A stretch of DNA of 64,000 nucleotides from Ferroplasma acidiphilum (lineage in GTDB: Archaea; Thermoplasmatota; Thermoplasmata; Thermoplasmatales; Thermoplasmataceae), in assembly GCF_002078355.1 (NCBI RefSeq), contig NZ_CP015363.1, forward strand, positions 992,001 through 1,056,000, given 5' to 3'. Every line of letters begins with the position of its first letter. Position 1 is the stretch's first letter. The notes under the pieces are model-generated. The model worked only from the letters and a program-made list of their open reading frames with translations, searched no databases and was not told the DNA's origin. Below are positions 22,143 to 63,685 of the stretch, in pieces. The translations under genes were made by a program, and so were the position numbers.

Positions 22143-22150
22143 TATTCAAA
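22143..22150. repeat. target-site duplication, left copy
   Basis: TATTCAAA abuts the left inverted repeat of the IS256-family element and is repeated exactly at 23405-23412. The 8-bp length is typical of the family. Confidence 0.85.
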
Positions 22151-23404
22151 GATAGTGTAAGTAATTGTCTGTAAATTATAAATGGCCTTGCATAATTTAG
22201 ATTGGGGTGAAAAAAATGCAAGACCAATTAGAAGTAATAAAAGAAAAGATAAAAAGTTATGGATTGAACAGAGAAAATATGAGGGATTTAAAGAAGTGGA
22301 TCCTGAATGATCTCATGAATGAGGAAGCAGAAGAGCAAATAAATGCATCCAGGTATGAGAGAAATAGTAATAGAAAGGATTACAGGAATGGGTATAAGCA
22401 GAGATCATTATTGACAACAGATGGAAAGATTATACTGGATAAGCCACAGTTCAGGGAAACATCTTTCCATACAGCTGTATTTGACAATTATTCAAGGGTA
22501 GAGAGAGCTGTAGAATCCATTATACTGGAATCATACCTTAGTGGAGTTTCTACAAGGAATGTGAATAAGGTAGTAAAATCCTTAGATGTACAGGTATCAC
22601 CATCCTATGTATCGTCATTATACTCAAGGCTTGATAAAACAGTAAATGAATTCCTTGAAAGGAAGATAGATGGAGTATATAAATTCATATACATAGATGG
22701 TACATACCTTAAAATAAGGAATAATGGAAGGTACAGGAATAAGGCCATCTATATCTGTGTAGGAATTAACAGTGATGGATATAGAGAGATATTAGGTGCA
22801 AGAATATATGATTCTGAAACTGAAATACAGTGGGAATTATTCTTTGATGATCTGAAAAACAGGGGATTAAATAGTGTTGAAATGGTAATATCAGATGGAA
22901 ATAAGGGTATTAGAGAAGCAGTTAAACAGTCATTTCCTGGTGCTTCATGGCAATACTGCCATGTACACTTTATGAGGAATTTAAGGAAATTAATGGGAAA
23001 ACAGCAATGGAAAGATATATCATTGCTGGTAAAGCGGGCACTGGATAATCCTGATATACTCCCTGTACTGCAGGATAAGCTTGTTGATAAAGGATTGGAT
23101 AAATGTTCTACTATGTTTGACAGATACTATGATTCATTATACAACTATAGATCATTCAATACAAATATACAGGGGCTTAGAAGACTAAGAGTATCCAATA
23201 CCATAGAAAGATTGAATGCAGAAATAAAAAGAAGGACTAAGAAAATAGGTGCATTTCCATCTGATGATTCTGCAATGAGATTAGCAGGTTCTATAATGAT
23301 GGACATAAATGAGGAGTATGTAACAGGAAGAAAATATATAAATATGGAGGAGATTAACAGAGAGTAAGGCTATTTACAATTTACAGAAAATAATGTACAT
23401 TATC
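22151..23404 (+). mobile_element. complete IS256-family insertion sequence, 1254 bp
   Basis: The element is bounded by imperfect terminal inverted repeats of 39 bases (22151-22189 and 23366-23404, 32 of 39 matching), which start GATA and end GCCTT on the inside. It is flanked by a perfect 8-bp duplication TATTCAAA. One intact transposase gene fills it, and its stop codon lies at the edge of the right inverted repeat. The perfect duplication and unbroken gene point to a recent, probably active insertion between acs and an aldo/keto reductase gene. Confidence 0.93.
22207..23367 (+). CDS. IS256/Mutator-family transposase
   Basis: The 386-residue DDE transposase has the catalytic acids in IYIDGTYLK (Asp164), MVISDGNKG (Asp230) and NTIERLNAEIKRR (Glu near 335). 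Between the second Asp and the Glu lies the QYCHVHFMRNL block with the conserved Cys and His that marks the Mutator superfamily. The N-terminal third is the DNA-binding part. Translation may start at the GTG at 22207 or the ATG at 22216. The gene is complete and sits inside intact inverted repeats. Confidence 0.95.
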   Translation: MKKMQDQLEVIKEKIKSYGLNRENMRDLKKWILNDLMNEEAEEQINASRYERNSNRKDYRNGYKQRSLLTTDGKIILDKPQFRETSFHTAVFDNYSRVERAVESIILESYLSGVSTRNVNKVVKSLDVQVSPSYVSSLYSRLDKTVNEFLERKIDGVYKFIYIDGTYLKIRNNGRYRNKAIYICVGINSDGYREILGARIYDSETEIQWELFFDDLKNRGLNSVEMVISDGNKGIREAVKQSFPGASWQYCHVHFMRNLRKLMGKQQWKDISLLVKRALDNPDILPVLQDKLVDKGLDKCSTMFDRYYDSLYNYRSFNTNIQGLRRLRVSNTIERLNAEIKRRTKKIGAFPSDDSAMRLAGSIMMDINEEYVTGRKYINMEEINRE

Positions 23405-23412
23405 TATTCAAA
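23405..23412. repeat. target-site duplication, right copy
   Basis: TATTCAAA, identical to 22143-22150, directly follows the right inverted repeat of the IS256-family element. Confidence 0.85.
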
Positions 23413-23502
23413 AAGGATTAACAATAAATTATGTATTACTTTTCTGTGGCCTGCAATTATCCGGTATCCCAAGTATTAAATAGGGATTATAAATTTTATT
23501 TA

Positions 23503-24531
23503 ATGAAATATGTTAATGTTGGAAATTCTGGATTAAAAGTTTCTACAGTGGCCATAGGTACATGGCACCTGCCAGGATCAGGACAATTTGTTAATAAGGT
23601 TGAATCTGTAGATGAAGAAGAATTTAAGAAAATTTTCAAGAAAGCTTATGATTTAGGCATAAATTTCTATGATACAGCAGATATTTACCATGGAAGAGTG
23701 GAACATAATGAGGATTGCATAGAATGCACAGGCAACTCGGAAAGGGTTCTTGGTAATATTTTAAAAGATTATGATAGGGAATCACTGGTTATATCTACAA
23801 AGGTAGCTGGACCTATGAATTATTATGTTAATTCATCCGGTCTATCCAGAAAACATATACTGCATGGCATTAAAAGTTCACTGGAGAGGCTAAAAACAGA
23901 TTATGTGGATTTATACCAGTTCCACTGGTCAGATAACGATACTCCATTAATAGAGACTTTAAAGGCAATGAGCCATACCGTCGACCTTGACCTATCCAGG
24001 TATATAGGGATGAGCAATGTTAATGCCTGTGATATTCCGGAATTTATGAATTTATCTGAAAAATATAATTTAAATAATTTTATAACAATGCAGGAGGCTT
24101 ATAATATACTTGACAGGAAAATTGAGAATGATAAGATTCTATATGCACAGAGATACAACTTAGGCTTGCTTGCATATATACCCCTTGATCAGGGGATACT
24201 TGCAGGGAAGTACTTAAACAATTACGGAAAAGGTTCCAGAATTACATACTATTCTGGGTTACAAAATGAAATAGATAGAACATTGAATACAGTAAAAAAA
24301 TTAAAGGAATTTGCTGATGAAAATGATATTACATTATCCCAGCTCGCCATAGCATGGCTATTAAATAGAGGTAGAGAATTAAATATTAAAATTATACCGC
24401 TACTGGGAATAACAAACATAAAATATCTGGATGACAATATAAATGCACTGAATGTGAACTTAAAAACTGAAGATATGAAATATATAAATGAATTATCCAG
24501 TGCTTATACTAATGACAACATGGGCCATTAG
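23503..24531 (+). CDS. aldo/keto reductase
   Basis: A TIM-barrel NADP-dependent oxidoreductase of 342 residues. The catalytic tetrad is visible: Asp in FYDTADIYHG, Tyr in the same motif, Lys in VISTKVAGP, and His in YQFHWSDND. The sequence opens with VNVGNSGLKVSTVAIGTW, typical of the AKR group related to the potassium-channel beta subunit. It reduces or oxidises an aldehyde or sugar; the substrate is unknown. The ATG at 23503 has a TATTAAATA box 25 bases upstream. The longer frame back to 23431 adds 24 unlikely residues. The IS256 element lies just upstream and may have separated the gene from part of its old control region. Confidence 0.87.
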   Translation: MKYVNVGNSGLKVSTVAIGTWHLPGSGQFVNKVESVDEEEFKKIFKKAYDLGINFYDTADIYHGRVEHNEDCIECTGNSERVLGNILKDYDRESLVISTKVAGPMNYYVNSSGLSRKHILHGIKSSLERLKTDYVDLYQFHWSDNDTPLIETLKAMSHTVDLDLSRYIGMSNVNACDIPEFMNLSEKYNLNNFITMQEAYNILDRKIENDKILYAQRYNLGLLAYIPLDQGILAGKYLNNYGKGSRITYYSGLQNEIDRTLNTVKKLKEFADENDITLSQLAIAWLLNRGRELNIKIIPLLGITNIKYLDDNINALNVNLKTEDMKYINELSSAYTNDNMGH

Positions 24532-24573
24532 TTTAAGAAAAATAAAACAAGTTTAGGAAGGCATATATTCATT

Positions 24574-24702
24574 CAGTGGTTTAAATCACAGAGTTCAATC
24601 AACATTACATGGTCATTGCCGTAAGGGGGTTATAGTTAAAGCTATTATACAAAGTTAAAGGAAAAAATAAAAATTAAAAATAAGACCATAAATAGGTATG
24701 AT
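24574..24702 (+). repeat. diverged direct repeat, copy A (left edge of sugar island)
   Basis: About 130 bases that align over their length with copy B at 35108-35252, with roughly 75% matching and a few gaps. Shared blocks include AGTTCAAT, TCATTGC, ATTATACAAAGTTAAAG and ATAAGAC-ATAAATA. It opens with a weak hairpin (GTGGT, loop, ATCAC). It lies in the 455-base gap between the aldo/keto reductase and a small secreted protein gene. The rest of that gap shows no gene. It may be an eroded insertion-sequence end or a non-coding RNA. Confidence 0.65.
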
Positions 24703-24986
24703 ATGTGAAATATTAGATGCAATAATCAAATAGAGATATTGTTCAGAACTTAATGGTATTCTGTTCGACTATTAAAGAAGTGCGGAGAGTTAGTAAAATT
24801 CTCTTATATTTTTAGCATTTAATTTGATGATCTGTATATCTGTTGTATATTCACCGGGTAGAGCAAATAGATTCCTTTTAGAATTAATGCTATTATTTGA
24901 GATGAGATTTAACTTTTTGTCGAATTTTTACATCATTCAATTTTTGCTATCGTTACCTTTTTATATGTATATACATTCTTTTAGTG

Positions 24987-25457
24987 ATGTTCAATTATAG
25001 AAAAGTTATTGCCACACTTATCACTTTTATACTTGTATTTATAATTATAATGTCAGGTTACATTTATTATCATAATTTTGATGAAAATAATAACAAGATA
25101 TATAATGACTCGATAAGTAAGATAAATGTGGGACAAATAGGGATTGATTATAATTATACCAAAATTATTTTTCCAAATACTGTAAATTCCAATTCAAATT
25201 TTAATATTATAATACTTTTTAATTCAAATATTTCAATCAAATATATATATACTCAAACTTCAGGGTTTTGTGTTTCAGAATGGTCATTTCATTATGGTTC
25301 CTATACAGAAAATGGCACTACACAGGGAGAATTTATAGGCTCTGTTGCAGAAAATATAGGAATATTAAATATAACCATTAAGGCTCCTGATCATTATTAT
25401 AATGGATACATTTCATTGCATCTTGTTGGCAATGTTCCTGAAACAGTTATTTATTAA
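24987..25457 (+). CDS. small membrane-anchored extracellular protein, unknown function
   Basis: A protein of about 156 residues. Residues 5-27 form one hydrophobic helix (VIATLITFILVFIIIMSGYI) after a short basic start. The remaining 125 residues are Asn/Ser/Tyr-rich with several N-x-S/T sites, as in surface-exposed, glycosylated archaeal proteins. The likely topology is N-terminus in, bulk outside. I do not recognise the domain. The 3' end overlaps by 11 bases the stop of the convergent sugar ABC ATPase gene. Its place beside the importer could mean an accessory surface role, which is a guess. Confidence 0.6.
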   Translation: MFNYRKVIATLITFILVFIIIMSGYIYYHNFDENNNKIYNDSISKINVGQIGIDYNYTKIIFPNTVNSNSNFNIIILFNSNISIKYIYTQTSGFCVSEWSFHYGSYTENGTTQGEFIGSVAENIGILNITIKAPDHYYNGYISLHLVGNVPETVIY

Positions 25458-26502
25458 TATTATCACCTTTTTCATTAAATACATGACATTTATTTAAGTT
25501 AAAGTATACAGGAATTTCTTTCCCTATACTTATATCACTTTCTTCTGTAATTATTTTTATTTCCTTATCACTTCCTGCCATCCCTATTATTAATGTGCGC
25601 GATCCAAGTAATTCCGAAATTTTAGGTACAATTTTTCCTTCTATATCATCATCATTTTGTTTATGTAAATATATATTTTCTGGCCTTACGCCTAATGTAA
25701 TGTTCTTATCTTCTGAATTTAATTTAAACTGAATTGAGCATTCGCCTTCATATATATTTCCATTTTTTCTGCATGAAAGCATATTCATTTCAGGATCACC
25801 AAGGAAAGTTGCAATATACTCATTTACTGGATTGTTATAGATATCTATTGGCTTACCATATTGTTCTAATAACCCATTGTGCAGAATTCCTATATGATCG
25901 CCAAGAGACATCGCTTCCATCTGATCATGAGTTACATAAATAAATGTTCTATTCAGTTCTTCCTGCATCAATTTTAACTCATTCCTAATTTTTGACCTTA
26001 TATTTGCGTCCAAATTGCTTAGTGGCTCATCCAGTAAAAATATTTTTGGGTCACGTACAAGCGCCCTTCCAAGTGCAATTCTTTGGGCCTGGCCCCCGGA
26101 TAATTCTCGCGGGTATCTGTCAAGTAATGTTGTAATATCAAGCGTCTTTGCGACTTCATTTACAATTCTTATTATGCTTTCTTTCTTGTAATTTAACATT
26201 TTTAATGGGAACGCCATATTTTTAAACACTGTCATATGGGGATATAACGCGTAATTTTGAAAAACCATAGCAACCCCACGTTCTACCGGTGACAATTGAT
26301 TAACAGCATTGTTGTCAAATAGGATTTTGCCACTATCCATTGTATCCAGACCGGCGAGTATATTTAATGTTGTTGATTTCCCTGATCCGGAAGAACCAAG
26401 TAATACAAAGAATTCTCCGTTTTCTATATCAAAATTCAAACCTTTCAATACTGGAACTTTTCCGTATGATTTGTATACATCTATTACTTTTACATCTGCC
26501 AT
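25447..26502 (-). CDS. sugar ABC transporter ATPase (MalK/UgpC-like, CUT1)
   Basis: The 351-residue ATPase has Walker A GSSGSGKS, Q-loop VFQNYALYPHMTV, signature LSGGQAQRIALGRAL, Walker B FLLDEPLSNLD and H-loop YVTHDQMEAMS. The C-terminal 110 residues form the OB-fold (TOBE) regulatory domain with LGVRPENIYL, as in MalK-type ATPases that serve di- and oligosaccharide importers. It is the last gene of a four-gene operon and follows the second permease after five bases. Confidence 0.93.
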   Translation of the reverse strand: MADVKVIDVYKSYGKVPVLKGLNFDIENGEFFVLLGSSGSGKSTTLNILAGLDTMDSGKILFDNNAVNQLSPVERGVAMVFQNYALYPHMTVFKNMAFPLKMLNYKKESIIRIVNEVAKTLDITTLLDRYPRELSGGQAQRIALGRALVRDPKIFLLDEPLSNLDANIRSKIRNELKLMQEELNRTFIYVTHDQMEAMSLGDHIGILHNGLLEQYGKPIDIYNNPVNEYIATFLGDPEMNMLSCRKNGNIYEGECSIQFKLNSEDKNITLGVRPENIYLHKQNDDDIEGKIVPKISELLGSRTLIIGMAGSDKEIKIITEESDISIGKEIPVYFNLNKCHVFNEKGDNINK

Positions 26503-26507
26503 TTAAA

Positions 26508-27314
26508 TCACCCTTTGACTCCTCCTGATAATGCTTTTATCATATATTTCTGGGAGAATATATATAATATAATAGCTGGAATAGTATATATTATAGAAAA
26601 TGCTGCTAGTTCGTTATACTGTACGTTATATGCACCAAAGAAACTGTATATTTCAACAGATATGGGAAACAAATGCGTCGATGAAAGTAAGATATATGGA
26701 ACATAAAAGTTTCCCCAGTTAATAACAAAATTCAGTATTATCAGAACAGCCATAATTGGCATAGCAAGCGGCAAAAAGATATAGAGCATAGACTTCAAAT
26801 TAGATGCACCGTCTATATATGATGCCTTTTCTATAGCCTGAGGTATCTGGTCAAATGAATTTTTTAATATCCATATGTCTATTGGCACATTTAAGACCCC
26901 TAAAAATAATATTACTCCAATTATATTATTATACAATGATTCTTTGACATAAAATACATATTCAGGTATTAATAATGAAAATACTGGAAATCCGGTTAGA
27001 AGTAATATACCTAGTAGCAAAGGTAATCTAAATCTAAATCTTTTTCTAGAAAAAATATAGGCAGGACCTATAGCAAATAAAATCGACAAAAAAGTCCCTC
27101 CAAATGACTGTATTAATCCTTCGTATATTGAATTGATAAATATTTTATTTGTTAATACAGAGTAAAAGGGTTTTAAAGTGTAATAGGATGGGAAGGTAAG
27201 CCCGACATTATTTAAAGGGCTAAAGGCCTCAACAATTAGCCATATAAATGGGATTACAAATAAAATGCCTAATAATGACAAAACGATATATGTTAATAAT
27301 TTATTTAATTTCAT
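26508..27314 (-). CDS. sugar ABC transporter permease (MalG-like)
   Basis: The 268-residue membrane subunit has six helices. The EAA loop that docks on the ATPase is EKASYIDGASNLKSMLYIFLPLAMP near residue 160. Size and position after the MalF-like gene fit the MalG role. It is spaced one base from the upstream permease stop and five bases from the ATPase, so the genes are translationally coupled. The importer would take up an oligosaccharide for the neighbouring glycoside hydrolases. Confidence 0.92.
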   Translation of the reverse strand: MKLNKLLTYIVLSLLGILFVIPFIWLIVEAFSPLNNVGLTFPSYYTLKPFYSVLTNKIFINSIYEGLIQSFGGTFLSILFAIGPAYIFSRKRFRFRLPLLLGILLLTGFPVFSLLIPEYVFYVKESLYNNIIGVILFLGVLNVPIDIWILKNSFDQIPQAIEKASYIDGASNLKSMLYIFLPLAMPIMAVLIILNFVINWGNFYVPYILLSSTHLFPISVEIYSFFGAYNVQYNELAAFSIIYTIPAIILYIFSQKYMIKALSGGVKG

Positions 27315-27315
27315 T

Positions 27316-28206
27316 TTAGTTCACCTTAATAAATTTAAGATATATTAAAGAAAGACCTAGGGCTATTATTATTATAATTACTCCGATAGCATTTGCCAGA
27401 CCAAGTGAAAATAGGGAAAAAGCTGTATTGTACTGATAAATTGTAAGCAACTCCGTACTACCAGCAGGTCCTCCGGCAGTAAGAACATATATCAATGTAA
27501 AAGTTCCAAATGTGAATAACGTAATTAATAACAAATCAGTTATTATACTTTTTTTCAAAAGAGGGAATATTATAGAGAAAAACCTTCTAAAAGGTTTTGC
27601 GCCATCAACATAAGATGCTTTTATTATCGATGGGTCAATTCCTTGAATTCCTCCAAGAAATATTAGTACAGAAAAACCGAGACCGATCCATATATTAGCT
27701 ATAATGATAGAATATAATGCATTGTGAATTGAGAGGAAATTTATAGAGTGCAATCCGAAACCGGTCAGTATAAAATTTATTGTCCCATCTGGTATGTAAC
27801 TCAATGTACTGTACCACATAATTCCCGCTGTAACCTGTGGTGTGGCCCATGCAATAAGTATAACTGTAGTTACTACTATCTTAAAATATTTCTGAGTCAA
27901 TGTTATTAAATAGGCTATTATAGAGCCCAGAAACATTTGCCCGATTATTGCTGAAAAAATCAAAAATATGATTGTAATATATATTGATTTCAAAAATAAG
28001 TGACTTGTAAATAATTCCTTGTAGTTAGTAAATTCCGTAAAAGCATAATGGCTAATATCATATAGAGATAAATTTGTAAATGAATATTTTATCGATAAGA
28101 ATATTGGATATATAAAAAATATGAGCAAATAAACGAAAGATGGTACTAATATTAAAAAAATTGCGTTCTTTTTAAAATTAAATTTATTTTTAGCAAACTG
28201 TTGCAT
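27316..28206 (-). CDS. sugar ABC transporter permease (MalF-like)
   Basis: The 296-residue membrane subunit has six to seven helices. Its EAA loop reads IKASYVDGAKPFRRFFSIIFPLLKK near residue 200, matching the G-x9-P spacing of CUT1 permeases. It lacks the large periplasmic loop of bacterial MalF, as is usual in archaea. It follows the solute-binding gene by six bases and precedes the second permease by one. Confidence 0.92.
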   Translation of the reverse strand: MQQFAKNKFNFKKNAIFLILVPSFVYLLIFFIYPIFLSIKYSFTNLSLYDISHYAFTEFTNYKELFTSHLFLKSIYITIIFLIFSAIIGQMFLGSIIAYLITLTQKYFKIVVTTVILIAWATPQVTAGIMWYSTLSYIPDGTINFILTGFGLHSINFLSIHNALYSIIIANIWIGLGFSVLIFLGGIQGIDPSIIKASYVDGAKPFRRFFSIIFPLLKKSIITDLLLITLFTFGTFTLIYVLTAGGPAGSTELLTIYQYNTAFSLFSLGLANAIGVIIIIIALGLSLIYLKFIKVN

Positions 28207-28212
28207 TTAGTT

Positions 28213-29772
28213 TCACCATAATAAATAACTTAACAGTGATAAAGACACATCCGAATATAAATTGGACATATAGTTGAACTGATTATTTCCGGTATCGTGT
28301 GAATTTATACTGAAATATGGTGTATAGGGTGTAGTAGCCACAACGCTAGTTCCACCTACTGCAGATACAAGCAAAGAATTGTATACTGTTGCGGCATGCG
28401 AAACACTATAATGAGCGCTAACAATATCACCCATTACTTGCTGGAGCGCATCTGAAACCTTGGGATATGCTGCAACAGGAGGCCTATAACTACCATATTT
28501 AAGTATATTCGTATAAAATGTATCCAGTGAAGGAGCAGTGGGCATAAGTTTTGCGAAATTTGTATTGTTTACAGCGTTTTTAGCTGTTGGTAGTCCACCA
28601 GCTAAAGCCTGACCGGGTTCATTTATTAGTATCTGATTTGATGTATTGTCCAGTGCAGTCATAAAGGAAGCAACTAATGGTTTTTCAGACGAAGGTGTGC
28701 CATTGTACATAGCCCAACCCCAGCCACCTACCATTGTATTGAATCCGGGTGCCTGACCGCTAGATGTGGGTATCATTGCAACACCTATATATTTGGTGAA
28801 GTTGTTTATTGGATGTTGTGCTCCTGGCGCCCATTGATATCCATACATCCAGCTACCATCTATAGCTATTGCTAATTTTCCCTGCTGTAAATCTTGACCT
28901 GCGGTTATATATGGTGTGGAACTTAATGCAGATGTTGCAAGACCTTCATCAAAAACTGTTTTATAGAATCCAAAAGTTTCATTTAAACCGTTACTGTACC
29001 CGACCCATTTATGATCTGTGAAGTTATATAGCCCGCTTCCAGTGCCGTATAATAAGCCTTCAAATCCTGTAAATGATGATGCTTCATCTCCTTTACTTCC
29101 CTCATATATGTTTAATGGAATTAAACTACTATCAGTAGGAACGAGAGTGTTATTTACCTTTTGTGCAGCGTCTATTATCTGAGTCCAGTTTGTTGGTTGC
29201 CATGTTGTATTGCTGGATGATATTACACCCGCCTTCTGTAATAATGTTATATTGTAATATATCAAAGTATCTGTGACCTGTGCAGGTAAACCATAATATG
29301 TTCCATTAATAGTCATCTGCCCTAATGCAGAGGGGAAAACATTGTCAAAGACAGTCGAATTTACATATGAATTTAGTGGTGATAATATTCCTTCGTGCTG
29401 ATATGTTGCTGTATAAAACATATCCTCTAACATGACGGAGGGCGCGGTAGAGGAAGATGAAGTTAATAAATCTAATTTTGTATAATATTGACCTTCACTA
29501 CTTGCCCCAGATGGACCTACAAACTTTATTGTAACATTTGGATGCGCTGCTTGCCAGCTTTGTGTTGCATTGTTTATAAAATCTTCCCAATCCTGGGTAG
29601 AAGATGAATAAACAGGCGCTGCTATTGAAATTGTTTCCTGTTTTGCCGGATGTTGAAATGTTGAATAATAGTAAATAAGTCCACCACTAATTATTGCGAC
29701 AATAACAATGATTATAACCACATACGTCCAAACTTTTCCTTTTGGTTTAATATCGGGATTACTACTTTGCAT
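28213..29772 (-). CDS. membrane-anchored sugar-binding protein of the CUT1 ABC importer
   Basis: About 519 residues. One helix at residues 14-36 (WTYVVIIIVIVAIISGG) tethers the protein, and the rest is an extracellular type-1-like binding domain rich in Ser, Thr, Asn and Tyr. Blocks such as YYGLPAQVTDTLIYYN, GKLAIAIDGSWMYG and VGGWGWAMYNG are those of family 1 sugar-binding proteins. It is the first gene of the operon. The ATG at 29772 has a TTATATATA box about 26 bases away and is preferred to the upstream TTG. The divergent neighbour is an alpha-mannosidase, so alpha-mannosides are a reasonable ligand guess. Confidence 0.9.
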   Translation of the reverse strand: MQSSNPDIKPKGKVWTYVVIIIVIVAIISGGLIYYYSTFQHPAKQETISIAAPVYSSSTQDWEDFINNATQSWQAAHPNVTIKFVGPSGASSEGQYYTKLDLLTSSSSTAPSVMLEDMFYTATYQHEGILSPLNSYVNSTVFDNVFPSALGQMTINGTYYGLPAQVTDTLIYYNITLLQKAGVISSSNTTWQPTNWTQIIDAAQKVNNTLVPTDSSLIPLNIYEGSKGDEASSFTGFEGLLYGTGSGLYNFTDHKWVGYSNGLNETFGFYKTVFDEGLATSALSSTPYITAGQDLQQGKLAIAIDGSWMYGYQWAPGAQHPINNFTKYIGVAMIPTSSGQAPGFNTMVGGWGWAMYNGTPSSEKPLVASFMTALDNTSNQILINEPGQALAGGLPTAKNAVNNTNFAKLMPTAPSLDTFYTNILKYGSYRPPVAAYPKVSDALQQVMGDIVSAHYSVSHAATVYNSLLVSAVGGTSVVATTPYTPYFSINSHDTGNNQFNYMSNLYSDVSLSLLSYLLW

Positions 29773-29883
29773 ACCAGATTTATACAAATGTTATATATAA
29801 TTGTTTTGCTGAATACAATAATAGTTATATTATAGTTGGGTAATATGTAAATAAGTTTAAATAATTAAATTAGATAAGTTTTC

Positions 29884-32800
29884 ATGTTCAAAACCAATAA
29901 CAAGTTAATAATATCTAGAAGATTATATGAAATTATATCTTTAAGCATAATAGACGTACAAATTATAGATCATGTAAAGCTAAATAATAATGATATAAAA
30001 TTACCCTACTCAACTTTTCAAAATCCCGATGACATTAATAATTTTTCCTTTGAAGTAAATTTGGATAAACTGGAGGATAATTATAAATACTTACTATCAG
30101 TAGAAATATCAGGAAATGCAGAATTAATTATTGATGGAATACTTGACCAATCAATAGATGCTGGCCATACATATTCAATATTTAACGGGCCAAAAAGGGA
30201 ATTTATACTCAGAACAGGAAGCAGGGAATTATTTGGAAGGAACCAGTGGGATTTAAGTATAAAATCTATAAAAATAATAACAATTAATTATACATTGTTT
30301 CAAATTGGCATGGAATTGTTACAGTTATATAATTATGCGAATACAATGGGAAGATCTAAAAACAAAATTTACAATAGTATGTTAAAGTATCTGTCAACAG
30401 TATATGAATCTCCAAATATAGAGCAAATTACAGGACTGGCTGCTGTGCTTCTGAATAAAAAACATAAAGAATTAATAGATTTTTTATCTGATATATATGG
30501 TTACCCCGTACTTAATAAAACCATTACAGATTATAATAGAAACAAAATTAACATGGACAGATATAATAACATATTAGATGAGATTGCTAAAACAATAAAC
30601 GAGATTAGTGATAGTAAATATAAAAATAATACAATGTTTACTTTCGGTCATTGTCATATAGATGTTGCCTGGTTGTGGCCATATTCTGAAACTGTAAGGA
30701 AAATACAGAGATCTTTTTCAAACGTCTTAAAACTTTACGATATGGATTTTAATTTTGCCTTTGCACAGAGTACAGCATTATACTACTATGAAATAGAAAA
30801 GAATAATAAATCCATTTTTAATAAGATTAAGAAATTGGTTAAAGAAGATAAATGGATTCCCGTTGGTGGCATGTGGGTTGAATCTGATACTAATTTAATA
30901 AGAGGAGAATCACTGGCTCGCCAGTTATTATACGGGCAGAGCTATTTTATGGAAGCTTTTAACAGATATGCCAGGATAGCATGGTTGCCTGATACTTTTG
31001 GTTTCTCTGGCCAATTGCCACAGTTGTTTGTTAAATCAGGTATGAATGCCTTTGTTACACATAAACCAATGTGGAACGACACAACCGAGTTTCCATACCA
31101 TTGTTTTAAGTGGTCTGGAATCGATAATACTTCAATTATGACGAGTATATCCAGTTTAGGTTATAATGAAAACCTGGATTTTGATTCTATTATCAATGCA
31201 TGTAAATTAAATAAAAATAGTGACCTGCCAATTACATATTTATATGGATATGGTGATGGTGGTGGAGGACCTGATATAGAAATGATGTTAAAGCTAAATC
31301 AGGCTAAACATTCAGAATTTATGCCCCGGGTCAAGAGCAGTTTTAATGAGCAGGATTATATTAGCAACCTTGATAAGTTTAATGATAAAATGCCCACTTA
31401 CAATGGTGAAATTTATCTTGAAAATCACCGTGGAGTTTATACTACAAATCATGAGATTAAAAAATTTGTTGCAACCCTTGAAGATAAATTATCAATGCTT
31501 GAATTTTTAAATTCTATGAATTATGGGTCTGCAACACAGAGAAATAACACAAAAAATCTGTGGTACAATTTACTGAAGGCACAGTTTCATGATATATTGC
31601 CAGGTTCAGCCTATTATTATGCATATGAAGAAGAATTTACTGAACTGGATAATTTAAATGAAGAGATAGATAAAATTACAATAATAGCGATAAAGATATT
31701 TATAGAAAATAAAAATATCAAGAAAGGTTTGATTGCCATAAACAATAGCCAGTATAGCTTTACTGGATATCTGGAAATAGACAGCTCAAATTTACCCTCC
31801 GAGATGCCAGGAAATGGAGTAATACATACTATGGATAAGGACTTTGTTTTAATAAACGTACCCGCATTAGGTTTTGCTACAGTTGATCAAAGTGCTGAAG
31901 ATAATAAATTTCAAAATCCAGTAAAAATTAGAAATGTAAAAGGTAAATATATAGTACAGAATGCAAAATTAAAGTTAATAATTAATTCTAAAGGTATTAT
32001 CTCATTTTTTCACAATAATAAAAAATATATCAAAAATGGAAACATAATCAGAATATACAATGACGTACCATCAAATTTTGATGCCTGGAATATAGATGTT
32101 CAAAATATAAAAAATGATATGCATATGGAAGAGATAAAAACTGATATTAGAATAATTTCAGAGAACACAATAGGCGTTATTGAAATTAAAAGAACATTTG
32201 AAGATAGTTCCTTTATAATACAGAAAATAATAGTAAAACCTGACTCAGATATCGTGGAATTTGAAAATACAGCTATACTGAATAACAGGGAAAAACTTGT
32301 TAAGGTTCTATTCGAACCGGGTTTCACTACAGATTATATTAGAAGGGAAATACCTTTCGGGTATGTGAGGATGAAATTAGATAGTGCAAATGAAAAAACA
32401 CATTTTGAATTCCCTGCATTGAGATATGTAGACTACAGCGATAACGACCATGGATTCTCAATAGTATCAAGAGAGTCTCATGGATACAGCTTTATTAGCA
32501 ATAAACTGGGTATAAGTATCGGGAAAACGCCATTATATCCAAACCCATTCTCCGATAGAAACGGGATTAAAGAAAAATTTTATGTGTGCCTGCATGATAG
32601 GAACTATAATATTTATAAAGAAGCAAATTTTATATTTAATCCTGTAAAACTCTACAATAATAAGTACGATGGTAACAAGAAAAAGGAGAGATTGCTCAAC
32701 TTTTCAGGAGATGATATAATCCTGGAAAATATAAAGATCTCTGAAAACGAACAGGGTTTAATAGCCAGATTTTACAATTGTTCTGATAAAATTTCAAACT

Positions 32801-32931
32801 TTGAATTGAAAATTCCTGATAAAGACATTTATGAAACAGATATACTTGAAAACAACAAAATCAAAATTGACAAAAATATCATCTTTAAACCCTTTGAAAT
32901 AAAAACACTGTTAATAGAAAAAATTCACTAA
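29884..32931 (+). CDS. GH38 alpha-mannosidase
   Basis: A 1015-residue glycosidase that removes terminal alpha-linked mannose. The GH38 zinc site begins GHCHIDVAWLWP near residue 257. The nucleophile Asp lies in WLPDTFGFSGQLPQ near residue 370. YGYGDGGGGP and the histidine in FHDILPGS are further family landmarks. The C-terminal half is the usual beta-sandwich region. There is no signal peptide, so the enzyme is probably cytosolic and acts on imported oligosaccharides. It is divergent from the sugar ABC operon across about 110 bases. Together with the mannose dehydrogenase and mannonate dehydratase near 17 kb it makes a complete mannoside route. Confidence 0.95.
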   Translation: MFKTNNKLIISRRLYEIISLSIIDVQIIDHVKLNNNDIKLPYSTFQNPDDINNFSFEVNLDKLEDNYKYLLSVEISGNAELIIDGILDQSIDAGHTYSIFNGPKREFILRTGSRELFGRNQWDLSIKSIKIITINYTLFQIGMELLQLYNYANTMGRSKNKIYNSMLKYLSTVYESPNIEQITGLAAVLLNKKHKELIDFLSDIYGYPVLNKTITDYNRNKINMDRYNNILDEIAKTINEISDSKYKNNTMFTFGHCHIDVAWLWPYSETVRKIQRSFSNVLKLYDMDFNFAFAQSTALYYYEIEKNNKSIFNKIKKLVKEDKWIPVGGMWVESDTNLIRGESLARQLLYGQSYFMEAFNRYARIAWLPDTFGFSGQLPQLFVKSGMNAFVTHKPMWNDTTEFPYHCFKWSGIDNTSIMTSISSLGYNENLDFDSIINACKLNKNSDLPITYLYGYGDGGGGPDIEMMLKLNQAKHSEFMPRVKSSFNEQDYISNLDKFNDKMPTYNGEIYLENHRGVYTTNHEIKKFVATLEDKLSMLEFLNSMNYGSATQRNNTKNLWYNLLKAQFHDILPGSAYYYAYEEEFTELDNLNEEIDKITIIAIKIFIENKNIKKGLIAINNSQYSFTGYLEIDSSNLPSEMPGNGVIHTMDKDFVLINVPALGFATVDQSAEDNKFQNPVKIRNVKGKYIVQNAKLKLIINSKGIISFFHNNKKYIKNGNIIRIYNDVPSNFDAWNIDVQNIKNDMHMEEIKTDIRIISENTIGVIEIKRTFEDSSFIIQKIIVKPDSDIVEFENTAILNNREKLVKVLFEPGFTTDYIRREIPFGYVRMKLDSANEKTHFEFPALRYVDYSDNDHGFSIVSRESHGYSFISNKLGISIGKTPLYPNPFSDRNGIKEKFYVCLHDRNYNIYKEANFIFNPVKLYNNKYDGNKKKERLLNFSGDDIILENIKISENEQGLIARFYNCSDKISNFELKIPDKDIYETDILENNKIKIDKNIIFKPFEIKTLLIEKIH

Positions 32932-33171
32932 GCTCCCATCACGCATAAACTATTATTTCTATTTACTACTTAATATTCTTCTAATGACTCTGGATGAGAA
33001 CAGCAAGGCATTATCATGTAAATAATATATATGGAAATTGAAAGATTCATAGTCCCTTAATAATCTATTATCTTTGTATATAACCTGATTTTTATGTCAA
33101 AAGGAAATTACAGATAAATGTATAGATATATTTAAAGCCACAAGTTATTAAAGTATGATATCACATTACTA

Positions 33172-35025
33172 TTAAAAATAAACAACCTCATAATCTAATG
33201 CTATACTGCTTTTTAATTCTTTTCCATCAAATTCTATATTTATCTCTTTATTGTTTTTAAATAATATCATCTTTGATTTTCCGAAAACAATTAATTTATT
33301 TTTTATAAGTAACATAGAATTCTTTCTTAGATATAAGGGATATTTTTCATCACTTTTAATATACTGGTTTCCTGAAATAATAGAAGAATTGTTTATATTT
33401 AACCAGCTTCCTGATGGGATATATAATTGTCTTTCATTGCCATAAATTTGTGGTGCATACAACAAATTACCTATGATGTATTCATCATCTATATAATATG
33501 CATTCATGTCATTAAAATCATAATAAAATAGTGGTTTAATAACAGGAAATCCATATAAATGTGATTCATATATTATTGAATATATATAATCAATTAATTC
33601 ATATCTTTTATTAATAGATTCTACGATCTGGTCTCTATAAAATTCTGGTAACTTAAATATTTCCTGATCATTTGAAAATTTATCTTTGTGGTTTCTATAA
33701 AATGGAAATAGTAATGCCATTTTATAATATTTGCTGATCAGTTCAGGCGATGATTCTCCCATGAATCCACCGAGGTCACAACCACATACACTTACCCCTG
33801 ATAAATTTAAAGACACTACCATTGAAATTTGCAATTTTAAATCGTCTTCGCTTGAAGTATTGTCACCGGTCCAGACTGCAGCATATTTTTCAATACCGGC
33901 ATAACCCGATCTTGAGACGATGAAAACGTCATCTTTTATCTCTTTCATTGCCTCATATGTGGCTTTCACCTGGAAATATGAATACGCATTATGTAAGTAT
34001 CTATGTTCTATTTTTTTATTGTCTATGTTATGCAGAGCATCCGGCTGTATAGTTTTAAACTCATTGAACAAAGAAGGCTCATTCATATCCAGCCATATGC
34101 CATCTGTATTTTTCATAAAATGTTTAATTTCCCCTTTCCACCATTTAATAGCATCTTGGTTAAAAAAATCTGGCATGGCTGAATTTCCAGGCCATAGATT
34201 TGATGTGTATATTTCACCGTTTTTGTTTTCTATATAATGGCCTAAGCCATTTTTAAAAACATTATAATCTTGGCTAATTTTAACGCCCGGGTCAATTATT
34301 GTTACCAATTTTACATCCCTTTTATGCAAGTTATCTAATAATCTTTTATTGTCCGGGAATTTATTTTTATCAAATGTAAATATTTTAAATTTGTCCATAT
34401 AATCAATATCTAAATAAATAGCAGAAACGTCTATATATTTTTTATAGTTATCTATTATACTATAAACTTCTTCTTCTGGATAATAACTATATCTTGATAT
34501 TTGATGTTTTATAGCCCATAACGGTGGCATAAATGTTTTGCCAATTAAACCCGTAAATTTCTTATATAAATCATCAAAATTATTAGACTCGAAAATATAT
34601 ATTTCACAGGATTTATTGTATATTTTAATTGTTAACTTATCATATTCTTTTATTCCGATGTCTATATCAATTTTTGAGACAGAGTTTATGAATATCCCGC
34701 TTATATTTTCAGAAATGGAGATTAAAAATGGTATGGATAAATATAAAGGGTCATCATATCTTTTGTAACCATTTGGGTCTGAGTTGTACATTGTGAACTT
34801 ATGCCTGTTTTTTAATACACTGTATGCTTTTTCTCCTAATCCTACAATTTTCTCATTTTGTGTTAATTTTTTCTTTAAAATTATATACTGATCTTCACAG
34901 GATATATCAAAAATAGTATTATTACTCTCCTTTAAATCATCACTATTAAAATTGATTAAGGGCTCATCATTGTTTATTATAATTTTTGTATAATTATCCC
35001 CTTTTAAAGTCTTTATTGCAGGCAT
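33172..35025 (-). CDS. GH31 alpha-glucosidase, MalA-like
   Basis: A 617-residue glycosidase resembling Sulfolobus MalA along its length: the YNSDPNGYKRYDDPLYLSIP substrate region, ISRYSYYPEEEV, the catalytic nucleophile in WLDMNEPS near residue 312, and the acid/base in AVWTGDNTSS. It hydrolyses maltose and other alpha-glucosides, possibly xylosides. No signal peptide is present. I start at the second Met of a Met-Met pair (35025). The frame continues to a TTG at 35127, but that part runs into repeat copy B and encodes an odd Cys/Ile-rich stretch, so it is not likely to be translated. Confidence 0.93.
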   Translation of the reverse strand: MPAIKTLKGDNYTKIIINNDEPLINFNSDDLKESNNTIFDISCEDQYIILKKKLTQNEKIVGLGEKAYSVLKNRHKFTMYNSDPNGYKRYDDPLYLSIPFLISISENISGIFINSVSKIDIDIGIKEYDKLTIKIYNKSCEIYIFESNNFDDLYKKFTGLIGKTFMPPLWAIKHQISRYSYYPEEEVYSIIDNYKKYIDVSAIYLDIDYMDKFKIFTFDKNKFPDNKRLLDNLHKRDVKLVTIIDPGVKISQDYNVFKNGLGHYIENKNGEIYTSNLWPGNSAMPDFFNQDAIKWWKGEIKHFMKNTDGIWLDMNEPSLFNEFKTIQPDALHNIDNKKIEHRYLHNAYSYFQVKATYEAMKEIKDDVFIVSRSGYAGIEKYAAVWTGDNTSSEDDLKLQISMVVSLNLSGVSVCGCDLGGFMGESSPELISKYYKMALLFPFYRNHKDKFSNDQEIFKLPEFYRDQIVESINKRYELIDYIYSIIYESHLYGFPVIKPLFYYDFNDMNAYYIDDEYIIGNLLYAPQIYGNERQLYIPSGSWLNINNSSIISGNQYIKSDEKYPLYLRKNSMLLIKNKLIVFGKSKMILFKNNKEINIEFDGKELKSSIALDYEVVYF

Positions 35026-35107
35026 CATTCCAAAATATATATTAATAATATAAATATATATGCATGTAAACGTTTCAATTACAAATAAGCATACACATAG
35101 CTCTGCC

Positions 35108-35252
35108 CGGTGGTTGTGAAACCACAAAGTTCAATTAATATTTCCTGATCATTGCTGTAATAAAGTTATGGTTAAAATCATTATACAAAGTTAAAGCCGA
35201 AAAAATATAATACATAAAAATTTAAAATAAGACTATAAATAATTATGACAGG
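35108..35252 (+). repeat. diverged direct repeat, copy B (right edge of ABC/GH38/GH31 segment)
   Basis: About 145 bases homologous to copy A at 24574-24702 and in the same orientation. It begins with a perfect hairpin GTGGTT-GTGA-AACCAC (35110-35125), which is weaker but kept in copy A with a G-U pair. It lies in the gap between the GH31 and GH15 genes, which shows no gene of its own. Confidence 0.65.
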
Positions 35253-35367
35253 ATAAATACCAGAAGGTAAGTTTGCTTTTAAACGCAATTCAAAAACCTA
35301 TCAATAAATCAACTCTATGAAAATATGGAAAGGATATCTATTAATATTTTTATTAAATTATCTATAA

Positions 35368-38803: not shown

Positions 38804-39066
38804 ACTACGGGAAGCTGTAATAAGACATTCCCCGGAGCATATTATGTTATTTTCTACTTCTTCATTTTAATTTCAGTATTTTGATGCAGAAGCTTACAGC
38901 CAGGGGCCACTTACTGTAACCTATTATAGCTATTCCTGCTTAATTGCATTTAACACTAGAAACTATCACAGAAAAACACCTTGTGTACCTATAATCGATT
39001 CATAAATAATATCATCTACACTAATAAATAGGGAAATTATGGAAGTTGTCAATCAAATAGTTGGAA

Positions 39067-56989: not shown

Positions 56990-57078
56990 GCATAGGAAAG
57001 CACTGCCAGTAGAGTGAAATACTGCATATCCTTAGGTTCAATTTCACCGGTGGTTTTAAATTCAGTTATTTTACTATA

Positions 57079-58932
57079 TTATTGTACATCCATAGAATTG
57101 CTACGATCATTCAAATCCATTTCCACATGGCATTGTCTTTTAAGGTATTCACCAGTTTCGCTGTCTTCACAGAATATATAGGTTCCATAAATTCCCCTTG
57201 TTAGAAGAATTCTGTATCGATTAACAAGAAGCTCTATAGCAGTGTCATATGATGTTTTATCTCCATTCTTTCCTTTAAAGAATAGTTTTTTAATTTCAAA
57301 ATCTTCGCAATTGTCTCCAAGCACCCATTTATTATCTCTCCTCACAAGGTCTCTTCCCCATATGACACCGGTATAATCAGCTTCAAATCCCTGTGCGCCA
57401 TAAACAGAAGCACATTTCTCCAGTTTATTTGATTCCCCACCTACCCAGAAAGGAGCATACTCTTTTTTAGGGTCCATAAGCCACCTTACCGCTATTCCGG
57501 TTCCAGAGTATAGATTAAGCCCTGATGGAATTCTATCCCCTATCCTGATATTATCCTGTGAATTAATATCGTGTATGTTTCCCTTTGCTTCAGTGAATGA
57601 GGCAACCAGAGCGGATTTTTTTCCAAGGTCTATTTTTGTTTTAAGTGTATTTATAAGGCATTTTATATCTGGAAAATATTGCAGGTCATACGGTTCAGGA
57701 TAAATTGTGGATTCACCTTTCAGCAGTTTATTTACAAATTCTCCGTACTCATTACCATTTCTATATAAGCCTTTAAGTGTTATTTCATGCGGGTTCTCAA
57801 GATACTTTAAAAAATTTGATTGTGTTCCCTGTTCGCGCGTTCCAAGTATCTGGGAATCGTCATAGAAGAATACCGATATATCTGCTACTTTTCCTGCATT
57901 TTTAATATTTTTAACGGTCATTCTCTGTGATTCGTCGAATATAGCAATATCATAATGTACTGGAAATTTATCTTCAGCAACACCGGGATTGCCGGGCCTT
58001 CCGGTTGAATAATATTTAATCAGGGTGGACATTCCCGTGCTAATACTATCAAGGAGTTTACGCAGCGATGCGACCATCCTGTTATTCCTGTAAGAAAGTA
58101 CAGATTGTTTGCCCATTGCTGATGACCTGAGAAGAAGGTTGAGGGCAATCAATGATTTTCCGGAACCGGGTCCGCCGTGGATTATATAATTTCCTGGCGT
58201 TCCTGTAAGCAGGTTATTAATTATTTCAAGATAGGGCTCCAATTGCTCGCTGTAAAGGCCATAACCTTCAGATGCAAGGGCTTTCATTGCGCCATTTTTG
58301 ATATCAAGATGGTATTTCCTTACAGCCTCAAATAAGTTTATATTTTGCCTGTACCTTGCATTGACAAAGGTCGTCAGGCTGTGAGGATCGAATCCAGGGT
58401 CTAAATTTTTCTTCAATTCCTTTATTATTAATTCCCGTTCATTTCCAGAATATATTCCATCCATAGATTTGTTGTGATTTAATATGTTGTATAAAATGAC
58501 CATAGAATTAATGTTAAAATTTTCTATCCCTTCTATACTATACTTTATTTTTCCAGAATAGTTCAACACCTGATATGAAGGATTAACTTCTTTTTTGTTA
58601 TCAGCAATTACAGAATAATCATCGACTATTTCCATGGTTCTCCAGCCTTTCATTTCAATTATCATCAGTGATGGAGATACAGTATTTCCGACAAATATAG
58701 CATCTGCCCGCTCTCCTCCTGCAGGAATGATGTACTCAAGAACAATGCCCTTGCTGTTAAGTGCTGTGATCAGATTATATAGATATGCAATAGAACCCTT
58801 CCAGGAATTATACAGGTATAACCCGGGAGATACATGAAATAGTTCTCTATATTTGTTTGCCAGGGCATCTGGAAAATCTTTATTGTATTCTTCAAGAAAA
58901 GATTTGGTGTTGTTATAATATAAATAATTCAT
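57079..58932 (-). CDS. PD-(D/E)XK nuclease-like domain fused to DUF2075 helicase-like ATPase
   Basis: The 617-residue protein has two parts. Residues 60-130 look like a restriction-endonuclease fold: RADAIF (Asp77), IIEMKGW (Glu93, Lys95) and NPSYQVLNY (Gln121). Residues 240-600 form a DUF2075/SF1-like NTPase: Walker A GGPGSGKS at 253-260, Walker B AIFDESQRM, YDDSQILG, LKGLYRNG, and late YGAQGFEADY and NRYRILLTRGIYGTYIF, which correspond to helicase motifs V and VI. Such proteins are linked to DNA processing or defence, but this one stands alone. A TTATAATA box lies upstream of the ATG at 58932. Confidence 0.78.
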   Translation of the reverse strand: MNYLYYNNTKSFLEEYNKDFPDALANKYRELFHVSPGLYLYNSWKGSIAYLYNLITALNSKGIVLEYIIPAGGERADAIFVGNTVSPSLMIIEMKGWRTMEIVDDYSVIADNKKEVNPSYQVLNYSGKIKYSIEGIENFNINSMVILYNILNHNKSMDGIYSGNERELIIKELKKNLDPGFDPHSLTTFVNARYRQNINLFEAVRKYHLDIKNGAMKALASEGYGLYSEQLEPYLEIINNLLTGTPGNYIIHGGPGSGKSLIALNLLLRSSAMGKQSVLSYRNNRMVASLRKLLDSISTGMSTLIKYYSTGRPGNPGVAEDKFPVHYDIAIFDESQRMTVKNIKNAGKVADISVFFYDDSQILGTREQGTQSNFLKYLENPHEITLKGLYRNGNEYGEFVNKLLKGESTIYPEPYDLQYFPDIKCLINTLKTKIDLGKKSALVASFTEAKGNIHDINSQDNIRIGDRIPSGLNLYSGTGIAVRWLMDPKKEYAPFWVGGESNKLEKCASVYGAQGFEADYTGVIWGRDLVRRDNKWVLGDNCEDFEIKKLFFKGKNGDKTSYDTAIELLVNRYRILLTRGIYGTYIFCEDSETGEYLKRQCHVEMDLNDRSNSMDVQ

Positions 58933-59065
58933 TGTAATAACAATATTATAACTTATTTAATAATTTTCTTTATATAAAAGAAAAATCCTTATATATTACA
59001 ACCAGGTATCCTGAGATACAGTATTATTTTCCTTATATTCAGGGTAAACGGTAAAATTTTGCGCC

Positions 59066-60319
59066 CTAAGCCCGACCATTCGCAGTACCTTGTATGTTGA
59101 CCACCTTTAACAGTATCAGGGCAAAACCTATAAAATAGAAAATAGAGGATAATTCAAAAAGCCGGGAATACTCAGCAGATCCCATACCCCGGAATAGAAA
59201 AAGGACCAGACCATATATCAATGGGGAAAACGCTGCACCTATCTCTGTGGAAACAAGGAATATGGATAAATATTTGCCTGCACTTCCATGCGGAACTATG
59301 AAACTCATATATGAATTTGTAATTGTAAAATAATTTCCATATGCTATACCTATTAATGAACCAAGGACTAAAAATAAGTAAAATGCGTGTATGAACGAGA
59401 TAAATAATATGCTGAATCCACTTATCAATGGAAATATTAACAGAAATATTTCTTTATTTATTTTATCAGCAAGAATTCCTATGCCCACAGTAGACAATGC
59501 TGAAATTAAAAGTATAGTTACACCTGCTATTGCAACATAGATTGCAGTATCTTTCAAATCAAGTGAATATTCAAAATAGTAATATTCAAAGAATACCAGT
59601 CCAGAGCTCCCTGTGGTTATGAAAAAATTAGCTATTGCCATCCATTTAAATTTTGTAGATTGTTTAAAGTTTTTAATAACACCGGAAAGCTTCCGGTGTA
59701 TAATTTCAGAGCTGCTAATATAATCCTCTCTTTTTATTGTAAATATTGTGATTATAGACCCTGCAGCTATAGTTATAAGGATTAATACAGTGGCAAGCTC
59801 TATTCGCCCTGTTCCGATTAAAACTCCCGATAACCCGAATCCAAAAGCTGAACCAATCAGTGTGAAAAAACCACCTACTCCTGATGATGTACTTCTCTGC
59901 GATTCGGGGATTATATCTCTAATCAACGGCTGGTAGGAGCCATAAGCAATATTGGACCCGATCTCAATCAGGATGTAAATAATAAAAATTGTAACAATGG
60001 TTTCTTTGATTATTATAAATAGCAATAAAGAAAATATAACAATTATAGAACCTATTAAAATCATAGGTCTTCTACGGCCATATCTTGAATGGAATTTATC
60101 TGAAAATGATCCGGAAAGAAAATTGAATGCAATTCCGATAATTATGCCCGCAAAAGCAATTATTCCAAGATATATCGTCTGGAGCCTGGATGGAACTAAT
60201 AATTCTATTACATATGGGAGGAATAATGACTCAAAGGAAGTCCATAAATAATTATTTCCAAGATATACGGAATTCATCCCAAAAATATACCTGAAAGACT
60301 TCAATGAGTGTTCGTTCAC
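59066..60319 (-). CDS. MFS transporter, sugar (SLC45/GPH-like) type, tandem copy 2
   Basis: A 417-residue carrier with 12 helices. GSFSDKFHSRYGRRRPMI is the loop 2-3 signature with the extended RYGRRRP form found in sugar carriers of the SLC45 and GPH groups. It is a paralog of the upstream gene (NNYLWTSFES matches TNYLWISYES at the same place), from which it is separated by 28 bases. The pair is probably one transcript. A disaccharide/proton symporter is a reasonable guess. Confidence 0.82.
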   Translation of the reverse strand: MNEHSLKSFRYIFGMNSVYLGNNYLWTSFESLFLPYVIELLVPSRLQTIYLGIIAFAGIIIGIAFNFLSGSFSDKFHSRYGRRRPMILIGSIIVIFSLLLFIIIKETIVTIFIIYILIEIGSNIAYGSYQPLIRDIIPESQRSTSSGVGGFFTLIGSAFGFGLSGVLIGTGRIELATVLILITIAAGSIITIFTIKREDYISSSEIIHRKLSGVIKNFKQSTKFKWMAIANFFITTGSSGLVFFEYYYFEYSLDLKDTAIYVAIAGVTILLISALSTVGIGILADKINKEIFLLIFPLISGFSILFISFIHAFYLFLVLGSLIGIAYGNYFTITNSYMSFIVPHGSAGKYLSIFLVSTEIGAAFSPLIYGLVLFLFRGMGSAEYSRLFELSSIFYFIGFALILLKVVNIQGTANGRA

Positions 60320-60347
60320 TATAATGGATAAGCAGGTAGCTTATAAA

Positions 60348-61565: not shown

Positions 61566-61795
61566 TTTTTATTAACATAGCTATAGTATTAATAAACATA
61601 CGTTTTGTATATTGATAGTTTTCATATAACTTCCAGAAAAGATAAAAACAATGAATAATTGACCTCGAGACAACATAATTTAGTTATACGCACATATCAG
61701 GTATAATTTATACAAATGTGCCAGCATTGGAAAAAGCCATGGGCAATATCAGTAAAGAATAGAACTTTATTATATAACTTAAGGCTATAATCCCT

Positions 61796-63013: not shown

Positions 63014-63109
63014 AGCAATGCACACGAATAAATTATTGACTCAAGTTAAATGATAAATCTATCTATTCCTATTATATATTATAGTAACAATAAAAGCATA
63101 CAGGTCATT

Positions 63110-63170
63110 CCATTGATAAAATGGCCATCTCGGAACCAGAGGGAACTGGATAGATGGTGTAGCGCTATCC
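63110..63170 (+). ncRNA. candidate structured RNA element
   Basis: CCATT-GATAA-AATGG (63110-63124) is followed directly by CCATCT...AGATGG (63125-63130 with 63152-63157), which encloses CCAG-AGGGAA-CTGG (63136-63149). A competing pair GGATAG/CTATCC (63148-63153 with 63165-63170) could give an alternative fold. The strand is uncertain. It is more GC-rich than its surroundings, which in AT-rich genomes often marks RNA genes. I do not recognise a known RNA family. Confidence 0.35.
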
Positions 63171-63656
63171 TCCCGGAGTTTGAGTATTATAAGAATGGTG
63201 GCTTCCAGAGGTATATTTTATATAGTTAAGGAAAAAGTAACCTTACTATGAATTATAATTATTCATTGCGTTTAACACGAGCTATTCTGATAAATTATTA
63301 AAATCAGATTTCTAAAACTTGTGTTTTTATTATTTCCTAACAAGAATATTACTTTTTATATCACTATTGTGTTTGGCATAGCACCATACCTTATACGTTT
63401 GGAATTTTTATAGTTTGCCGGTTTTGGATGCTATATTCGTAAATATGCTTAAATTTTTCATCATCAGATAAATTTAATGTACAATGGAATTTTTATATAA
63501 GACAATACATAATATTTAACGATAAGAAATGAATTCAATACTAATATTTTTTTACTATTAAAGTTTTTAGGAGAATGGAAAGGCCGGTTATTAGAATTTT
63601 TAGTGTTTTATAAATAATTCAATATATTATTTATTAATTTTTAAAATTATAGCAGG

Positions 63657-63664
63657 TTTATATA
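63657..63664 (+). promoter_or_regulatory. TATA box of the PEP carboxykinase gene
   Basis: TTTATATA is centred 25 bases before the ATG at 63686, so the message should be leaderless. Confidence 0.55.
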
Positions 63665-63685
63665 ACAGGATTCACATCAAACTAT

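What the first reader, a model, noticed from the sequence alone, without database searches (positions are those of the whole stretch)
24574..35252. Diverged direct repeats bracket a 10.5-kb sugar-uptake and glycosidase segment
Seen: copies A (24574-24702) and B (35108-35252) align over about 140 bases in the same orientation and share a leading hairpin. They enclose the small surface protein, the CUT1 ABC operon, GH38 and GH31. Inference: the segment may have been acquired or could be lost by recombination between the repeats, or the repeats are eroded insertion-sequence ends acting like a composite transposon.
Basis: partly seen in the sequence, partly recalled or inferred. Interest (0 to 1): 0.66.

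Follow-up and report, generated by a model that had tools for sequence, protein, structure and literature searches.

The report
IS110 relics flanking a strain-specific sugar island
Two worn-down ends of an IS110-type jumping gene flank a 10.5-kb set of sugar-uptake and sugar-splitting genes in the acid-loving archaeon Ferroplasma acidiphilum, and its closest sequenced relative lacks exactly that set and keeps one such end, so the repeats mark where the genes were gained or lost.

Summary
Copies A and B are 75% identical over about 140 bp (E 6e-22), and as a full-length pair they are unique in the genome. The element-derived half of each repeat (A 24568-24652, B 35100-35188, minus strand) is the left non-coding end (LE) of an IS110-group insertion sequence. 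Relatives of this end lie directly upstream of DEDD/Transposase_20 recombinase genes elsewhere in Y, Fer1 and other Ferroplasma, fold like a bridge RNA and carry target guides matching their own insertion sites. The next ~60 bp are flanking DNA shared only by A, B and C. F. acidarmanus Fer1 lacks the CUT1/GH38/GH31 segment and has one repeat, C, between the same two neighbours. A profile built without A, B and C finds exactly these three copies in 184 kb. Best reading: gain or loss of a catabolic island by recombination between decayed IS110-end repeats. Direction is unsettled: the GH31-GH15 pair in two relatives favours loss in Fer1; the CUT1-GH38 block resembling another genus favours lateral exchange. 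A composite transposon is not supported, nor is an active small RNA.

The parts
24568..24652 (-). Repeat A, part 1: relic of IS110-group left end (positions 2-86 of a 208-nt LE profile); terminus at about 24652
   Evidence: nhmmer with a profile of 8 LEs built without A/B/C, E 8.5e-9, none in reversed control
24653..24714 (.). Repeat A, part 2: about 60 bp of flanking (old target-side) DNA shared only with B and C
   Evidence: matches of other copies in the genome and family stop at the LE terminus
24984..25457 (+).
   Evidence: no Pfam hit; homologues
25447..29787 (-). CUT1 sugar ABC operon: ATPase, two permeases, solute-binding protein
   Evidence: PF00005, PF00528, PF01547
29884..32931 (+). 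GH38 alpha-mannosidase-type glycosidase
   Evidence: PF01074 and PF07748; absent from Fer1
33172..35031 (-). GH31 glycosidase; start probably ATG near 35031, not TTG 35127
   Evidence: PF01055; absent from Fer1, 76-77% identical in G052 and G060
35100..35188 (-). Repeat B, part 1: relic of IS110-group left end (profile positions 2-88), inserted in the GH31-GH15 intergenic region
   Evidence: nhmmer E 8.1e-13; absent from the same intergenic region in G052 and G060
35189..35260 (.). Repeat B, part 2: flank shared with A and C, continuing into the GH15 upstream region
23431..24531 (+). Left conserved neighbour: aldo/keto reductase (94.5% aa identity to Fer1)
   Evidence: PF00248
35368..37218 (+). 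Right conserved neighbour: GH15 glucoamylase/trehalase-type enzyme (96% aa identity to Fer1)
   Evidence: PF00723

Best explanation
[quoted passage not shown] This relic plus about 60 bp of flank now exists twice in F. acidiphilum Y, as direct repeats at the ends of a 10.5-kb block (CUT1 ABC transporter, GH38, GH31). Homology-dependent recombination between the repeats switches the locus between 'A-segment-B' (strain Y) and 'single repeat C' (Fer1). Shown: identity of the relics, the shared flank, the clean presence/absence between strains, and one repeat at the empty junction. Inferred: that the exchange was ordinary (RadA-type) homologous recombination, and its direction, where I favour loss in Fer1 at about 60% over acquisition by Y.
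For: IS110 identity: the core of B matches sequence directly upstream of recombinase genes with PF01548 and PF02371. Full copies share the LE start CTTGTATAATG and RE end AGTATACT. A profile without A/B/C finds only A, B and C in 184 kb of Y and Fer1. LEs fold into a 5' stem-loop, a target loop and a donor loop, as described for IS110 bridge RNAs (PMC11208160). Own guide-target match 3.8/8 versus 2.4/8 shuffled without A/B/C (p 6e-4); A, B, C match 6, 7 and 7 of 10 at the canonical spacing of 61 nt. Indel: in Fer1 AKR-C-GH15 is contiguous, C's left flank matches A's and its right flank matches B's; Fer1 has no GH38 or GH31 orthologue anywhere. Direction: the GH31-GH15 divergent pair persists in G052 and G060 without any LE between, so its absence in Fer1 looks derived.
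Against: A, B and C are about equally diverged (17, 17 and 14 private differences), so no clear crossover point is visible in C. A and B are now only 75% identical with a longest exact run of about 17 nt, so recombination today would be inefficient; the event must be older. CUT1-GH38 proteins are closer to a different genus (G024, 70-85%) than to G052 (59-78%), although control proteins show the reverse (58-65% versus 80-86%), which speaks for lateral exchange of that block. How A, with its GH15-side flank, came to lie beside AKR is not explained by a single step.
Confidence: 0.8

Rival explanations
1. Acquisition by Y: a circular or linear DNA from a diverged Ferroplasma carrying the segment and one copy of the relic recombined with the single repeat of a Fer1-like chromosome, duplicating the repeat at both ends.
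For: Segment GC is lower than its flanks (28-34% versus 33-39%); CUT1-GH38 is closest to another genus; Y-Fer1 DNA identity falls to 87-91% next to the segment versus about 94-97% in most of the rest of the window, as after import of foreign DNA; the repeats are as diverged as sequences of different lineages.
Against: GH31 lies divergently next to GH15 in G052 and G060 at ordinary orthologue identity (76-78%), so Y would have had to lose and regain the pair in the same arrangement; no mobility gene lies in the segment.
Confidence: 0.35
2. Composite transposon: two IS110 elements flanked the segment and moved it as cargo.
For: Both repeats contain IS110 LE sequence in direct orientation.
Against: The repeat continues about 60 bp past the element end into the same flank in A, B and C, which two independent insertions would not give; no right end or recombinase at either; C sits at the same site without the cargo.
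Confidence: 0.04
3. Bridge-RNA-directed recombination by an IS110 recombinase acting in trans on the LT-CT-RD half-sites in A and B excised or inserted the segment.
For: Both repeats retain a CT core with target-side and donor-side sequence; IS110 recombinases catalyse excision and inversion (PMC11208160); intact recombinase genes are present in Y and Fer1.
Against: A and B are two left junctions, not the donor-target or LE-RE pair the enzyme normally recombines; the homology of about 140 bp is sufficient explanation; C shows no switch exactly at the core.
Confidence: 0.07
4. Conserved regulatory RNA or promoter element shared by co-regulated sugar genes, not a mobile-element relic.
For: A block AATAAGACYATAAATA in the 60-bp flank is nearly invariant in A, B and C and lies upstream of GH15 in Y and Fer1.
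Against: The LE part is homologous to sequence beside recombinase genes across the genus; A and B fold no better than shuffles; no Rfam hit; absent upstream of GH15 in G052 and G060.
Confidence: 0.05

Closest known systems
IS110-group insertion sequences with bridge RNA in the left end (IS621 type; PMC11208160)
   Same: Long LE upstream of a DEDD/Transposase_20 recombinase, CT core, 5' stem-loop plus target loop plus donor loop, left target guide matching the insertion site in the full relatives
   Different: A and B are relics: about 90 of 208 nt of LE, no donor loop, no recombinase, no RE
Genomic islands bounded by direct repeats and gained or lost by homologous recombination
   Same: Direct repeats at both ends; empty-site relative with a single repeat; catabolic cargo; atypical GC
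   Different: Repeats are not a tRNA att site and the island has no integrase; the repeat is an IS relic plus flank
Strain variation between F. acidiphilum Y and F. acidarmanus Fer1 (PMC5473848, PMC12350378)
   Same: Same two genomes; IS elements, including IS110, and genomic islands reported
   Different: This indel and its IS110 relics are not mentioned in the passages of these two papers I read; the island named there nearest in number (905,732-938,099) is elsewhere

Membership tests
IS110-group IS left end (bridge-RNA gene) | Sequence homology to LEs adjacent to IS110 recombinase genes | tested here: met
IS110-group IS left end (bridge-RNA gene) | LE longer than RE in the element family | tested here: met
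   Full relatives: LE about 208 nt, RE about 110 nt
IS110-group IS left end (bridge-RNA gene) | Complete bridge RNA: 5' stem-loop, target loop and donor loop | tested here: not met
   Present in full relatives but A and B stop at profile position 86-88 of 208, so the donor half is absent, and the remaining stems have decayed: relics, not functional members
IS110-group IS left end (bridge-RNA gene) | Target guide in the RNA corresponds to the insertion site | tested here: met
   Family level p 6e-4 without A/B/C; A 6/10, B 7/10, C 7/10 including core; individually modest
Intact mobile IS110 element | Adjacent DEDD/Transposase_20 gene and right end | tested here: not met
   No IS110 recombinase homology anywhere in the window (tblastn); the neighbouring genes are GH31, GH15, AKR and a small ORF
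Composite transposon | Two complete or near-complete IS copies with independent outer flanks | tested here: not met
   Shared 60-bp flank beyond the element end in A, B and C
Direct-repeat-bounded genomic island | Relative with empty site and a single repeat copy | tested here: met
   Fer1 L061:9974-10141 between AKR and GH15
Direct-repeat-bounded genomic island | Excised circle or reversible loss within a strain | not testable with these tools
   Needs reads or PCR

The most novel reading that the evidence does not exclude
Transposase-less IS110 left ends in archaea act as bridge-RNA-addressed recombination sites, so that an IS110 recombinase supplied in trans moves or flips host catabolic blocks between them; the CUT1-GH38 block is inverted between Y and G052.
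Probability: 0.06. Interest if true: 0.8.

Novelty: new member of a known kind. Interest (0 to 1): 0.45.

Why it matters
It turns an anonymous repeat pair into an interpretable event. A decayed bridge-RNA gene marks the breakpoints of a 10.5-kb sugar-catabolism difference between the two reference Ferroplasma strains, and so predicts a physiological difference (uptake and hydrolysis of alpha-mannosides or alpha-glucosides) that can be tested. It also gives a Thermoplasmatales set of IS110 elements in which bridge-RNA guides can be matched to natural insertion sites.

Tried and rejected
Rfam scan of the whole window: no family reached threshold. tRNA/att-site origin: no tRNA in the window. Small RNA or hairpin function of A and B: folds are no better than shuffles. 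Mosaic test for a crossover point in C: inconclusive. First guide-target test with gapped anchoring put several guides out of register; redone with ungapped anchors. Right target guides were only inspected by eye: L062 GGAATAG against right target CTATTCC and L063 TATATAG against CTATATA fit, but there were too few complete elements for statistics. Internal deletion between the LE ATAGTATG and the RE ATAGTATA as the source of the roughly 90-nt relics was considered; it is unsupported.

Full report
Source. The window is G000:C1:992001-1056000 of a single 1,826,943-bp contig, the size reported for F. acidiphilum Y (PMC5473848). G009 is F. acidarmanus Fer1, NC_021592.1; PMC5473848 gives a median ANI of 98.7% between the two.

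Observation. A and B are direct repeats at 75% identity over about 140 bp, E 6e-22. No other place in the genome matches both halves of the repeat. Three further places match only the first ~70 bp of B: 905627(+), 948349(+) and 1385905(-).

What the repeat is. At 905627 and 948349 the matching stretch lies directly upstream of an ORF which, in the complete copy, carries DEDD_Tnp_IS110 (PF01548) and Transposase_20 (PF02371); at 1385905 the gene is interrupted by a Mutator-type transposase ORF. Aligning full copies from Y and Fer1 defines an element with LE start CTTGTATAATG, about 208 nt of LE, the recombinase gene and about 110 nt of RE ending AGTATACT. All matches of B to these copies end at window 35188, the element terminus. 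Only A, B and one Fer1 copy (C) share the next ~60 bp. A profile made from eight LEs without A, B or C, searched against the window plus 120 kb of Fer1, gives three hits only: A 24652-24568 (E 8.5e-9), B 35188-35100 (E 8.1e-13) and C (E 9.6e-15), all starting at profile position 2; the reversed control gives none.

Bridge-RNA features. Covariation support is modest because the sequences are close: 4 of 43 pairs have compensatory changes, and the single-sequence energy is not clearly below shuffles (z -1.1). The architecture and CT core match the published description (PMC11208160). The ten bases before TGTGG (left target guide) match the ten bases at the insertion site: for example TTGAGTTCCT/GTGAGTTCCT in G040 and AAGTATATCT/GAGTAGATCT in Fer1. 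Across 13 distinct guides without A/B/C the non-core identity is 3.8/8 versus 2.4/8 in shuffled pairings, p 6e-4. A, B and C keep the same 61-nt spacing and match their own flank at 6, 7 and 7 of 10. In A and B the profile match ends at position 86-88 of 208, so the donor loop is gone, and both fold no better than shuffled sequence. They are relics.

The empty site. In Fer1 the aldo/keto reductase (94.5% aa), one repeat C (L061:9974-10141) and GH15 (96% aa) are contiguous. C's left flank aligns with A's and its right flank with B's. Fer1 has no GH38 and no GH31 orthologue anywhere.

Direction. G052 and G060 (same genus) keep the divergent GH31-GH15 pair (76-77% and 78% identity) with no LE between the genes, so that adjacency is probably ancestral and Fer1 lost it. 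G052 also has the CUT1 operon, the small ORF and GH38 beside GH31, but as an inverted block. The CUT1-GH38 proteins of Y are closer to G024, another genus (70-85%; small ORF 59%), than to G052 (59-78%; small ORF 40%). Two control proteins show the opposite: acetyl-CoA synthetase 65% to G024 versus 86% to G052, and an enolase-superfamily dehydratase 58% versus 80%. So that block has been exchanged laterally at some time. Y-Fer1 DNA identity falls to 87-91% next to the segment against about 94-97% in most of the rest of the window. A, B and C are about equidistant, so C does not show a clean crossover point. Recombination at the repeats is well supported; its direction is not settled.

Composite transposon. 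Two independent insertions would share element sequence but not flank. A, B and C share flank beyond the element end, so A and B are two copies of one junction. The composite-transposon reading is therefore rejected, while the 'eroded IS end' part of the finding is confirmed.

Limits. Only one representative per species is held apart from the Fer1/Y pair, so strain-level presence/absence could not be surveyed. G handles other than Fer1, G060 and G063 (metagenome bins) are unnamed. No expression data were available.

Noticed in passing
L061:14161-18693 (Fer1), opposite window 38804-39005: Fer1 carries a different CUT1 sugar ABC operon (24-34% identical to the Y one, 46-59% to one in G060) just beyond GH15 and the MFS gene, absent from Y. 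The GH15 / MFS / glucose dehydrogenase neighbourhood looks like a hot spot for swapping sugar-uptake operons.
   Followed up: partly
window 22149-23406: Mutator-family transposase gene (PF00872) between acetyl-CoA synthetase and the aldo/keto reductase in Y, absent from Fer1.
   Followed up: partly
L063:3295-4800, L064, L124, L125, L135, L137: IS110 copies in several genomes sit at the same target GAATTGAGTTC|CT; in L063 the next ORF resembles an IS481/rve-type transposase (by eye, not Pfam-tested), so this IS110 may target the end of another IS.
   Followed up: partly
window 57000-64000: Y and Fer1 are 98-100% identical here, against 87-97% over most of the window to the left: a sharp divergence step suggesting recent recombination between the strains or introgression.
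   Followed up: no
window 35031-35127: The GH31 ORF as called from TTG 35127 overlaps repeat B; homology to relatives begins near ATG 35031, so the longer start is probably wrong.
   Followed up: yes
G026 contig C11, G061 contigs, G040:C1:1207717: Many short, transposase-less IS110 left-end fragments (23-116 nt) are scattered through Ferroplasma genomes, all anchored at the element terminus.
   Followed up: partly
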